The notes beneath the pieces were generated by a model. It was not told where the DNA came from. It saw only the letters and a list, made by a program, of their open reading frames with translations, and did not search any database. From NCBI GenBank assembly GCA_037783545.1, contig JBBELK010000015.1:744001-808000 (forward strand): DNA of 64,000 nucleotides, written 5' to 3'. This DNA is from Henricia sp. BOLD:AAB3569 (lineage: Eukaryota > Echinodermata > Asteroidea > Spinulosida > Echinasteridae). Positions within the stretch are counted from its first letter, which is position 1. Every line of letters begins with the position of its first letter. Shown here in pieces: positions 25,650-34,600 of the stretch. A program made the translations under genes and the position numbers.

Positions 25650-28600
25650 ATGGCAGTGTGGCAGCAGGTTCTCGCTTTAGATGCCAGATACAACACATAT
25701 AGAGCACCAAATAATCCTCAATTCAGTGAGTATTAAAATTAACATAACAATGTTATGACATGTCCAATGTGGTCGATGTTAAATCTCAAACGCTGCAGTA
25801 ATGTTTGCAAAATTCAAGAAATATCCGAAGAAAAAAATAATTGGGCCGCACGAGGGCGCTGCAAAAGACACAATTTAGACTTGACCAAGTCTTTCAAAGG
25901 CAGATTTGTGTATGTGAGGCTGTGATTACAACGACCTCCGCGTCTTATAGTGCCAGGGCATTATGAATGATTCCATGAGCCTTCTTGGTTGTGGCAGTCC
26001 AATAAATAAATTTCAATTGTGTCTTAGTGGGTCTCTGTCTTTGTTGCGTTGGGCCAATAAAGTACCCTGGTCTGCCTGAATTCAACCTCAAACGCTGCAG
26101 TAATATTTCTGTATAAAGTACACTGGTCAGCGCGAAAACCACCTCAAACGCTGCAGTAATATTTCTGTATAAAGTACACCGGTCGGCGCGAAATCCACCT
26201 CAAACGCTGCAGTAATATTTCTGTATAAAGTACACCGGTCGGCGCGAAATCCACCTCAAACGCTGAGGTAATATTTCTGTATAAAGTACACTGGTCTGCC
26301 TGAAAACCACCTCAAACGCTGCAGTAATTTTTCTGTATAAAGTACACTGGTCAGCGCGAAATCCACCTCAAATGCTGCAGTAATGTTTTGTTTTATAAAG
26401 TATATTGGTCTGCCTGAAAACCACCTCAAACGCTGCAGTAATATTTGTGCGTAAAGCCTATTGGTCTCCCTGAAATCCACCTCAAACGCTGCAGTAATGT
26501 TTTTTTTATAAAGTATATTGGTCTGCCTGAAAACCACCTCAAACGCTGCAGTAATGTTTTTTTTTATAAAGTATATTGGTCTGCCTGAAAACCACCTCAA
26601 ACGCTGCAGTAATTATTCTGCGTAAAGCCTATTGGTCTCCCTGAAATCCACCTCAAACGCTGCAGTAATGTTTTTTTTATAAAGTATATTGGTCTGCCTG
26701 AAAACCACCTCAAACGCTGCAGTAATATTTGTGCGTAAAGCCTATTGGTCTCCCTGAAAACCACCTCAAACGCTGCAGTAATGTTTTTTTTTATAAAGTA
26801 TATTGGTCTGCCTGAAAACCACCTCAAACGCTGCAGTAATTTTTCTGCGTAAAGCCTATTGGTCTCCCTGAAAACCACCTCAAACGCTGCAGTAATATTT
26901 CTGTATAAAGTACACTGGTCAGCGCGAAAACCACCTCAAACGCTGCAGTAATTTTTCTGTATAAAGTACACTGGTCGGCGCGAAATGCACCTCAAACGCT
27001 GCAGTAATATTTCTGTAAAAAGTACACTGGTCTGCCTGAAAACCACCTCAAACGCTGCAGTAATATTTGTGCGTAAAGCCTATTGGTCTCCCTGAAAACC
27101 ACCTCAAACGCTGCAGTAATATTTCTGTATAAAGTACACTGGTCAGCGCGAAATGCACCTCAAACGCTGCAGTAATGTTTTTTTTATAAAGTATATTGGT
27201 CTGCCTGAAAACCACCTCAAACGCTGCAGTAATTTTTCTGCGTAAAGCCTATTGGTCTCCCTGAAATCCACCTCAAACGCTGCAGTAATGTTTTTTTTAT
27301 AAAGTATATTGGTCTGCCTGAAAACCACCTCAAACGCTGCAGTAATATTTGTGCGTAAAGCCTATTGGTCTCCCTGAAAACCACCTCAAACGCTGCAGTA
27401 ATTTTTCTGCGTAAAGCCTATTGGTCTCCCTGAAAACCACCTCAAACGCTGCAGTAATATTTGTGCGTAAAGCCTATTGGTCTCCCTGAAAACCACCTCA
27501 AACGCTGCAGTAATATTTCTGTATAAAGTACACTGGTCAGCGCGAAAACCACCTCAAACGCTGCAGTAATATTTCTGTATAAAGTACACTGGTCAGCGCG
27601 AAAACCACCTCAAACGCTGCAGTAATTTTTCTGTATAAAGTACACTGGTCAGCGCGAAATCCACCTCAAACGCTGCAGTAATATTTCTGTATAAAGTACA
27701 CTGGTCAGCGCGAAAACCACCTCAAACGCTGCAGTAATTTTTCTGTATAAAGTACACTGGTCAGCGCGAAATCCACCTCAAACGCTGCAGTAATTTTTCT
27801 GTATAAAGTACACTGGTCAGCGCGAAATCCACCTCAAACGCTGCAGTAATGTTTTTTTTATAAAGTATATTGGTCTGCCTGAAAACCACCTCAAACGCTG
27901 CAGTAATATTTGTGCGTAAAGCCTATTGGTCTCCCTGAAAACCACCTCAAACGCTGCAGTAATTTTTCTGCGTAAAGCCTATTGGTCTCCCTGAAAACCA
28001 CCTCAAACGCTGCAGTAATATTTGTGCGTAAAGCCTATTGGTCTCCCTGAAAACCACCTCAAACGCTGCAGTAATATTTCTGTATAAAGTACACTGGTCA
28101 GCGCGAAAACCACCTCAAACGCTGCAGTAATATTTCTGTATAAAGTACACTGGTCAGCGCGAAAACCACCTCAAACGCTGCAGTAATTTTTCTGTATAAA
28201 GTACACTGGTCAGCGCGAAATCCACCTCAAACGCTGCAGTAATTTTTCTGTATAAAGTACACTGGTCAGCGCGAAATCCACCTCAAACGCTGCAGTAATG
28301 TTTTTTTTATAAAGTATATTGGTCTGCCTGAAAACCACCTCAAACGCTGCAGTAATTTTTCTGTATAAAGTACACTGGTCAGCGCGAAATCCACCTCAAA
28401 TGCTGCAGTAATGTTTTGTTTTATAAAGTATATTGGTCTGCCTGAAAACCACCTCAAACGCTGCAGTAATATTTGTGCGTAAAGCCTATTGGTCTCCCTG
28501 AAATCCACCTCAAACGCTGCAGTAATGTTTTTTTTATAAAGTATATTGGTCTGCCTGAAAACCACCTCAAACGCTGCAGTAATGTTTTTTTTTATAAAGT

Positions 28601-31600: not shown

Positions 31601-34600
31601 CACCAAAGTACCATTACATATAGTAGTCGACTTATCGCATGTGTTATGACAATTTAACAATTGAGAATAAAATGCTCTGGATGCAGAATCATTATTAAAC
31701 TTAAAACTTGAGACATAAGAACCAACTGTAAACCCTTAATAATGCCACTCACTTTAGGCACTCCAATAGCATGCAATAAGGGTGTACTATGACAAATCTG
31801 TGCTATGGAACTAGTCCATTAATTTACAATCATAAAAACCCAACTTGAAAGTTGTTTGGGGGGTTAAAATCAAGGTTTTCGATTTTTATGCTATGAAAAT
31901 TTACATATGCATGAGCAAAGTGATGGAAAACACAGGAAAATCTCATTCAACTGTGCACAAAAGTTTCCACAATTTTCTCCAACTTGCTGAAACGTTTGTA
32001 ACCCATGATGGTTTAGGTTTGTTTTACATGTTGCCTGTTTCAAACCATGAAAAAAACTAAGGCTGGAAACTGCAGCATTTTTTTTTCACAATTCTAGTTT
32101 GAAGTCTTATGTTTTTTATTTGCTTTTTTGCAGTGTGTTCCTAAAGTGACATGCCCCAAACAGTGCCCTCTGTCTGTGAGTTTATGTAAAGATATTTTCA
32201 AAGTTGAAAAATGACACTTTTTACTCATGGGGCATCAAAATGAACAGTAGTATTGTCTTTTTACACAAGTAATCCTTCATATGCAGCAAAAACTGTGCAT
32301 AAAGTTATTGAGCATTTCATGGGCCCTTTAAATTAACACTCTGACATCCATAAGTCAATATGGGGATTAAAACGGAATTCCACAAACTTTGACATCCGAG
32401 CTGGAACCACCCTTACAAAGCCCGCCCCCTGTAGGGAGAAGAATGCCATTTGACATTTCCTCATTCTCTCTTCCATGTGACTCTTACAATTTAAATCAGA
32501 AGACAAAGTGACCCCTAGGTTAGTGATGTGATCGAATCATTTAAAAACCAAGCAGGTTCATTAACAAAATGATTCTTCCCAAAAGTGCAGCAAAATGTCT
32601 TAGAGGGATTAAAACGTAAACCATGTTCCACAATATAATCATTTGCATAATCAATCAACAACTGAAGGCCAGATGGGGTCATGCTAAGAAGTAGTAAATC
32701 ATCTGCATAACAAAAAAACATTTAAATTATAACGAGCTGTAACAATACCACAATTGAGATTATTTAGGCCATTCACCAAATCTTTATAAAACAAGTTAAA
32801 AATCAAAGGAGAGGAATGTCCTCCTTGCCTCGTGCCCTTACAAATATTAACTCGTTTACCCAGACTGTTAGCCCATTTAACCTTGACGGAAATATTATAA
32901 TACCAAAAATAAAGACATCTCCACCAACCATCTCTAATATTATCAATTAATTTATTAAGATCCACGGTTATTGCAATATTTGATGACATCGTGAACAGAG
33001 GCAGCAGCCATGGCTGTGCCCCTACCATTAAAAAACCCATACTGAGGTGGTTTTCAGGGAGACCAATAGGCTTTACGCACAAATATTACTGCAGCGTTTG
33101 AGGTGGTTTTCAGGCAGACCAATATACTTTATAAAAAAACATTACTGCAGCGTTTGAGGTGGATTTCGCGCTGACCAGTGTACTTTATACAGAAAAATTA
33201 CTGCAGCGTTTGAGGTGGTTTTCGCGCTGACCAGTGTACTTTATACAGAAATATTACTGCAGCGTTTGAGGTGGTTTTCAGGGAGACCAATAGGCTTTAC
33301 GCAGAAAAATTACTGCAGCGTTTGAGGTGGTTTTCAGGCAGACCAATATACTTTATAAAAAAAAACATTACTGCAGCGTTTGAGGTGGTTTTCAGGGAGA
33401 CCAATAGGCTTTACGCAGAAATATTACTGCAGCGTTTGAGGTGGTTTTCAGGCAGACCAATAGGCTTCACACAGAAATATTACTGCAGCGTTTGAGGTGG
33501 ATTTCGCGCTGATAACGGTGTACTTGCTACAAAAATATTAATACAGCCTTTGACTCCTATCTCCCTTCCCCCTCCCCTCCCTTCGACCGCCCCAACCCTG
33601 TCCCGGCCCACCCCTGCCCCAACCCCACCCCTGCCCTGGCCAACCCCACCCCAGCCCCAACCCCACCCCAGCCCCAACCCCACCCCAGCCCCAACCCCAC
33701 CCCAACCCCAGCACCAACCCCACCCCACACCCCCCAAGCCAAGTAAATGCAAGTCGTATCATGGAGCTATATGGTCGTATACAGCCAAAACAAACACAAA
33801 ACCCAAATTATTTTCCATTGATGCAAGCCGAATCGCTAATTATTTGTCTCGCTGAAGGCTAATGGCAGGCGTACTATTGTACTATTTTATGCCAAAGGAC
33901 TAGGTGAAGTCTAATTTAGAAGCAAAATGTGTGCCGCCCTCATTCCACTTTTTCTTCGGATATTTCTTGAATTTTGAAAACATTACTGCAGCGTTTGAGA
34001 TTTAACATCCACCGTCCAATGTACCATGTCGGTTTGTAAGCTTAGGCTAAAGCCTAGGCTTTGCTTTACAAAATGTTTCTTAGTTTAATTCAAATATCAC
34101 TTCATTCAATTAAACATTGCTTTCCATATTGTCTGCAAACTATTCTGTCGGTCGCTGCCACGTCACACATCCGGCCGGTAGGGCTGGAGTGAAAACAACG
34201 GTGTGCCCACGGTGACAAGCACTGAACAAAGCGATTGTCCATGTTGTCTACGGTACGCAACACGTACACGTACGCGTATCTAAGCATGAACGAATTTGTT
34301 TTCACTCCAGTCATGCTGCTATACCCGTATACAAAGGCATATATGACACCGGGTCACAAAAGTGCCAGGATGTGCGACCGACAGAATTCCAGGAGAGGTT
34401 TAACATTTTTTTTCACTGTCCATGAGCTTACAAATAATTAAATGCCAATATTTAATACAAATTACCTTTTAACTTAATTAAATTAAAGCTTTTTGTTGTA
34501 CCCCACTATATCCTAGCTTGTATTAACTGCAGATCTTTATCAATTTGTGCACACAGGAACACTTTACATCCGGAGAAGAAGTCAGTTATTGAGAGAGACT

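What the first reader, a model, noticed from the sequence alone, without database searches (positions are those of the whole stretch)
25765..34025. A foldback-type transposon of about 8.2 kb with minisatellite arms inside WDR13 intron 1
The sequence shows a terminal inverted repeat at both ends, arrays of one 56-57 bp unit in opposite orientation just inside the ends, and an unrelated loop. Foldback elements with tandem-repeat arms are known (Drosophila FB and Galileo, sea urchin TU), but this unit and terminus are not ones I recognise. The element makes WDR13 intron 1 several times longer than all its other introns.
Basis: partly seen in the sequence, partly recalled or inferred. Interest (0 to 1): 0.8.

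Follow-up and report, generated by a model that had tools for sequence, protein, structure and literature searches.

The report
Foldback transposon in an animal gene
An 8.2 kb jumping DNA element with arms built from many copies of one short repeat sits inside the first intron of an animal WDR13 gene; it is a convincing new example of a known type of transposon rather than a new kind of thing.

Summary
The element is 25771-34013 (8,243 bp). Its terminal inverted repeats, starting GGT, match at 63 of 65 bp, and an exact 9-bp direct repeat (GTCCAATGT, 25762-25770 and 34014-34022) abuts both ends, the footprint of transposition. Inside are a left array of about 85 copies of a 56-58 bp unit and a right array of about 8 copies in opposite orientation, matching a left-arm segment at 447 of 463 bases. 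The unit contains an 18-22 bp piece of the terminus itself. The loop holds a frame-shifted reverse-transcriptase fragment and a copy of a dispersed repeat. No transposase domain was found in 36 of 36 frames scanned. It lies 45 bp inside WDR13 intron 1, which would be 579 bp without it. Anatomy and duplication length match Mutator-type foldback elements such as Tetris and Tm1. Superfamily, host species and further copies could not be tested: no host genome is held. Verdict: a real foldback transposon, a new member of a known kind; its arrays are probably amplified transposase-binding sites (inferred by analogy with Galileo).

The parts
25762..25770 (+). left copy of the 9-bp target-site duplication GTCCAATGT
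25771..25835 (+). left terminal inverted repeat, 63/65 identical to the right end; a weak diverged match continues inward
   Evidence: bases 66-150 of the two ends: local score reached by 6 of 2000 shuffles
25836..26056 (+). left spacer between terminus and array; its inner part is not detectably homologous to the right spacer
26057..30852 (+). left arm: tandem array of about 85 copies of a 56-58 bp unit containing an 18-22 bp terminus sequence; holds an exact 1,055-bp repeat at shift 2,028 bp and other segmental duplications
30853..33042 (.). loop, unrelated to the arms
31130..31310 (+). copy of a dispersed repeat also found at 46729-46900 (+) and 14510-14683 (-), 74-75% identical
32518..33042 (-). 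degenerate reverse-transcriptase fragment in two frames (RVT_1 profile positions 68-152, then 149-192), cut off at the right array
33043..33505 (-). right arm: about 8.2 copies of the same unit in opposite orientation, 447/463 identical to 26643-27106
33506..33948 (-). right spacer; its inner edge holds a decayed unit (core at 33537-33554 with 4 mismatches), and it includes a C-rich 17-bp repeat (33587-33733)
33949..34013 (-). right terminal inverted repeat
34014..34022 (+). right copy of the 9-bp target-site duplication
25650..25725 (+). WDR13 coding exon 1 ([25 protein letters not shown]...), donor GTGAGT at 25726
34557..34612 (+). WDR13 exon 2 (joins in frame to ...[21 protein letters not shown]); 34612 is the end of the protein match, not a mapped splice site

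Best explanation
It is a non-autonomous foldback-type DNA transposon, probably of the Mutator (MULE/Phantom) superfamily, that inserted into WDR13 intron 1 and duplicated 9 bp of target. Shown: the ends, the 9-bp duplication, the inverted arms, the sequence shared by terminus and array unit, the segmental growth of the left array, and the reverse-transcriptase fragment and dispersed repeat in the loop. Inferred: a transposase encoded elsewhere in the genome binds the terminus; the 18-22 bp piece shared by terminus and unit is part or all of that binding site; the arms grew by tandem duplication of a subterminal copy (unequal exchange or replication slippage), which multiplied binding sites; the loop was filled by capture or nested insertion of other repeats.
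For: Exact 9-bp direct repeat abutting 65-bp inverted termini at 63/65; chance about 5e-6 to 7e-6 at one register. Arms in opposite orientation sharing the unit-type order F-E-A from outside inwards and 447/463 identity. Of 91 complete units, 88 share at least 18 bp with the terminus from its position 15 (18 bp in 69, 22 bp in 19); 3 share only 11-15 bp. Across the 21 distinct unit types, 3 of 19 core columns vary against 35 of 50 outside (Fisher p 8e-5). The left array carries exact duplications of 1,055, 644, 601, 495 and 488 bp at shifts of 2,028, 1,748, 2,313, 2,309 and 565 bp. No transposase domain in any of the 36 stop-to-stop frames of 38 aa or more listed for the non-array parts (Pfam); only RVT_1 had real support. 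Published parallels: Tetris (TSD 8-10 bp; terminus and 220-bp unit share 37 bp), Tm1 (9-bp TSD, Phantom-type transposase), Galileo (transposase THAP domain binds sites inside the tandem repeats).
Against: Only one copy is visible, so family status and mobility rest on a single insertion. No transposase and no empty allele were seen. The arms are very unequal (85 against 8) and the spacers are not homologous (40 of 500 shuffles), so the present copy is rearranged. The core-conservation test is biased: units were cut at the core with at most 3 mismatches; the decayed outer right unit (core 33537-33554, 4 mismatches to the 18-bp core) and the incomplete units at the array edges were left out; unit types are related by descent, so the p-value is rough. 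In Galileo-G only two of the four long repeats carry the binding site, so repeats need not mean binding sites.
Confidence: 0.88

Rival explanations
1. Same structure, but mobilised by another superfamily that also duplicates 8-9 bp (Merlin, hAT or P type) rather than Mutator.
For: A 9-bp duplication is not unique to Mutator (lengths of the other superfamilies recalled, no call); foldback structure has arisen in different superfamilies (Galileo is P-type).
Against: 9 bp is the common length in Tm1, which has a Mutator/Phantom-type transposase (45 of 53 complete elements have 8-10 bp, most commonly 9), and Tetris was assigned to Mutator on the same ground.
Confidence: 0.3
2. An ordinary intronic minisatellite that was partly inverted, with no transposon involved.
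For: Most of the left arm is a minisatellite that grew by segmental duplication.
Against: It leaves the 65-bp inverted termini and the exact 9-bp direct repeat at both outer ends unexplained.
Confidence: 0.03
3. Two separate insertions (one per arm) that happen to face each other.
For: The spacers between terminus and array differ on the two sides.
Against: One 9-bp duplication spans the pair, and a blastn comparison of the outer regions with the window found the 65-bp terminus only at the two ends.
Confidence: 0.04
4. The left array length is partly an assembly artefact (a wrongly duplicated tandem repeat); this would change the copy number, not the identity of the element.
For: A 1,055-bp exact repeat at shift 2,028 bp.
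Against: It concerns only copy number, not the ends or the right arm; unit order between and after the repeated blocks differs.
Confidence: 0.15

Closest known systems
Tetris, foldback transposon of Drosophila virilis (PMC4079207; abstract, introduction, section 10 and the first of two parts of the discussion read)
   Same: Non-autonomous; terminus domain, then tandem repeats in each arm, then a variable middle; 8-10 bp target duplication; terminus shares a stretch with the tandem unit; arrays can reach satellite size (up to 66 copies)
   Different: Unit about 220 bp rather than 56 bp; shared stretch 37 bp at about 80% identity rather than 18-22 bp at 100%; relation by sequence not tested
Tm1, Mutator/Phantom foldback of Meloidogyne (PMC3169594; passages seen)
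   Same: 9-bp target duplication; tandem-repeat arms unequal between the two ends of one element; the repeats are better conserved in one part
   Different: 13-15 bp unit, 1-9 units per arm; outermost 7 bp differ between its two ends (here 1 of the first 7 differs); has transposase-encoding members
Galileo, P-superfamily foldback-like element of Drosophila (PMC3688188, PMC3573991; passages seen)
   Same: Long, internally repetitive inverted ends; terminal-type sequence repeated inside the arms, shown there to bind the transposase THAP domain
   Different: 7-bp target duplication; P-type transposase; repeats of about 210 bp in 0-3 copies (subfamily F, D. mojavensis) or four long repeats (Galileo-G), two of them with the binding site
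Drosophila FB and sea urchin TU (structure recalled; both kinds only cited in the Tetris paper)
   Same: Inverted arms of tandem repeats around an unrelated loop

Membership tests
Foldback-type (structural class) | Terminal inverted repeats | tested here: met
   63/65
Foldback-type (structural class) | Inverted arms made of tandem repeats | tested here: met
Foldback-type (structural class) | Unrelated central loop | tested here: met
Foldback-type (structural class) | Target-site duplication at the outer ends | tested here: met
   exact 9 bp
Foldback-type (structural class) | Several dispersed copies in the host genome | not testable with these tools
   no genome held
Mutator (MULE/Phantom) superfamily | Target duplication of about 9 bp (8-10 in Tm1 and Tetris) | tested here: met
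   suggestive, not sufficient
Mutator (MULE/Phantom) superfamily | MULE transposase in an autonomous relative | not testable with these tools
   none in this copy (36 of 36 listed frames scanned); no genome held
P superfamily / Galileo | 7-bp target duplication in Galileo; 8 bp in P (recalled) | tested here: not met
   the exact direct repeat at the ends is 9 bp
Helitron with tandem-repeat core (features recalled) | No target duplication and no terminal inverted repeat | tested here: not met
   both are present

The most novel reading that the evidence does not exclude
The transposon has turned part of its own terminus, a putative transposase-binding site, into a selected, growing array of more than 90 copies, so that array size sets its mobility or soaks up transposase, and it is now seeding a minisatellite within a gene.
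Probability: 0.3. Interest if true: 0.55.

Novelty: new member of a known kind. Interest (0 to 1): 0.35.

Why it matters
It is a cleanly bounded foldback element in an animal gene, with a longer array than those in the papers seen here (about 85 units, against up to 66 in Tetris satellite arrays, and 1-9 per arm in Tm1). It supports the idea that such arms grow from terminus-derived sequence. It also turned a 579-bp first intron into an 8.8-kb one, starting 45 bp from the splice donor, with inverted arms that could fold in the pre-mRNA (inference).

Tried and rejected
Host genome search for the terminus: no genome held. Exact-pattern scans for core, terminus and unit in viral contigs and genome contigs: 0 matches; these collections hold viruses and prokaryotes, so this is uninformative about the host.

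Transposase in the element: one search listed 36 stop-to-stop frames of 38 aa or more in the non-array parts. All 36 were scanned with Pfam (2, 10, 10, 10, 4). Only the reverse-transcriptase profile matched with real support, in two frames and below its curated cut-off (26.2 and 27.1 bits against 29.6). Other rows (YoaL 0.031, 2TM 0.15, Neil1-DNA_bind 0.13) are taken as chance. The third protein (46629-46853) lies outside the element and had no match. Shorter frames and the arrays were not scanned.

Simple insertion of a LINE into the array as the origin of the loop: the array does not continue on the far side and I saw no target duplication by eye, so capture or deletion is more likely. This was not tested by computation.

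Minisatellite alone, two separate insertions, Helitron: rejected because of the ends and the 9-bp duplication.

WDR13 exons: one search gave 23 tblastn rows; I used the 13 that are colinear on the + strand from 25647 to 42453 (two of them weak: E 0.060 and 0.42) and dropped 10 as chance (E 0.28 to 7.5).

Papers: 8 searches. Searches aimed at sea urchins, other echinoderms, hemichordates, amphioxus and molluscs; of the papers listed (1 of 1, 1 of 1, 12 of 1,681 and 8 of 161) none was, by title and start of abstract, a description of such an element. The library is open-access only, and no repeat database was available, so I do not claim that the family is unpublished.

Full report
WHAT IS THERE. 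The region read contains one bounded element at 25771-34013. Its ends are inverted repeats: 25771-25835 matches 34013-33949 at 63 of 65 positions, the two differences being at positions 4 and 37. Immediately outside, GTCCAATGT stands at 25762-25770 and again at 34014-34022. A 9-mer match at one fixed register is expected with probability about 5e-6 from base composition; random pairs from the rest of the window matched in 6 of 200,000 and 21 of 3,000,000. Direct repeats of this size flush against inverted termini are the usual footprint of transposon insertion (established knowledge).

Beyond 65 bp the two ends still show a weak match (a stretch of about 32 bp; 6 of 2000 shuffles reach its score). 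The rest of the spacers is not detectably related (40 of 500 shuffles). The right spacer includes a C-rich 17-bp tandem repeat.

ARMS. TRF finds 85 copies of a 56-bp period at 26057-30852 and 8.2 at 33043-33505. Cutting at the core gives 84 complete units on the left and 7 on the right, 91 in all, of 21 distinct types. Incomplete units at the array edges and one decayed unit on the right (core 33537-33554, 4 mismatches) are not in that count. Coded by type, the left arm reads from outside inwards AGGO-BHICFJCDFEAKLDMCNC-DEDAABABBCDEDAABBC-BHICFJCDFEAKLDMCNC-BABBCDEDAABAPBCDEDAABBCDQR, and the right arm STFEABU plus one truncated unit. The two arms share the order F-E-A, and the best gapped match is 447 of 463 bases (26643-27106, and equally 28671-29134, against 33505-33043; a third stretch, 30250-30711, gives 434 of 461). 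The simplest reading is that both arms come from one ancestral array in inverted orientation, after which the left arm grew by segmental duplication: an 18-unit block recurs 36 units further on, exact over 1,055 bp, with further exact blocks of 644, 601, 495 and 488 bp. An assembly effect on the copy number cannot be excluded.

TERMINUS AND UNIT ARE RELATED. Positions 15-36 of the terminus, CTCAAACGCTGCAGTAATGTTT, recur in the unit in the same orientation relative to the end. 19 of 91 units keep all 22 bp, 69 keep the first 18, and 3 keep 11-15. This is also the quiet part of the unit: 3 of 19 columns vary among the 21 types, against 35 of 50 elsewhere. Two cautions apply: units were found through this core, and one decayed edge unit was thereby left out; and the unit types share ancestry.

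LOOP. 30853-33042 contains a reverse-transcriptase fragment on the minus strand, in two frames (RVT_1, E 7.6e-6 and 4.1e-6, both slightly below the curated cut-off), running up to the right array, and a copy of a dispersed repeat with two further copies in the window. That the fragment belongs to a LINE is my reading of its sequence (recalled motifs), not a test. None of the 36 frames of 38 aa or more in the non-array parts shows a transposase domain, so this copy is taken to be non-autonomous.

SETTING. A human WDR13 query recalled from memory places 13 colinear matches on the plus strand from 25647 to 42453, of 23 rows in all, the other 10 being weak and scattered. WD40 domains pass Pfam's cut-off in two of the exon-bearing frames. 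Exon 1 ends at 25725 before GTGAGT, and exon 2 begins at 34557 after CACACAG; joined, they read ...[15 protein letters not shown]... in frame. Intron 1 is 8,831 bp, of which 8,252 bp are element plus one target copy, leaving 579 bp. I did not check the whole gene for damage. The host is presumably an animal (it has WDR13); the species was not identified.

HOW IT PROBABLY WORKS. Shown: one insertion with a 9-bp duplication; arms built from a terminus-containing unit; growth of one arm by duplication. Inferred: a transposase supplied from elsewhere recognises the terminus; the shared piece is a binding site; its multiplication is either selected for better recognition, as proposed for Galileo, where the transposase THAP domain binds a site near the end and two sites within the repeats (passages of PMC3688188), or is a by-product of recombination in arrays. 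The discussion of PMC4079207 (first of two parts) proposes the same two stages for Tetris: early gain, then satellite-like growth.

COMPARISON. In structure this is a Tetris/Tm1-like element: Tetris has 8-10 bp duplications, and its terminus and 220-bp unit share 37 bp; Tm1 has 9-bp duplications, arms of 1-9 units that differ between the two ends, and a Phantom-type transposase. Membership of Mutator is likely but rests on duplication length alone. Galileo/P is disfavoured by duplication length (for Galileo). No sequence relation to any named family could be tested with the collections at hand.

VERDICT. Confirmed as a foldback transposon; new member of a known kind; interest modest (0.35), chiefly for the very long, very unequal, terminus-derived array.

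Noticed in passing
36112-36500: Tandem array of about five 76-bp units resembling a tRNA-type SINE head (TAGCTCAGCTGGTAGAGC, recalled motif); related stretches at 51372-51451, 44805-44865, 8891-8965, 16982-17055 and 20018-20098; one (51352-51424, minus) just passes Rfam's tRNA threshold, 29.1 against 29 bits.
   Followed up: partly
54768-55260: 493-bp imperfect palindrome (self-complementary at 86%), possibly a MITE of the hairpin kind.
   Followed up: partly
9826-10046 and 63121-63337: Two copies of one palindromic element whose neighbouring bases are also alike (CTATTGACCCCTTTCGAACA on one side, AGCTCAATA on the other), so the repeat is longer than its palindromic part.
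   Followed up: partly
12473-12932, 61736-61968, 2677-2916, 24861-25053, 60736-60883, 197-339, 17669-17808: Further self-complementary repeats; the window is dense in short inverted-repeat elements.
   Followed up: no
14510-14730, 31130-31310, 46680-46900: Dispersed repeat of about 215 bp, one shorter copy lying in the loop of the element.
   Followed up: partly
8592-8861 (-), 51868-52158 and 53247-53486 (-), 63615-63998 (-): Likely exons of neighbouring genes: a Sec7-domain protein (E 1.8e-10), a protein kinase (two pieces, both just under Pfam's cut-off) and a HEAT-repeat protein.
   Followed up: partly
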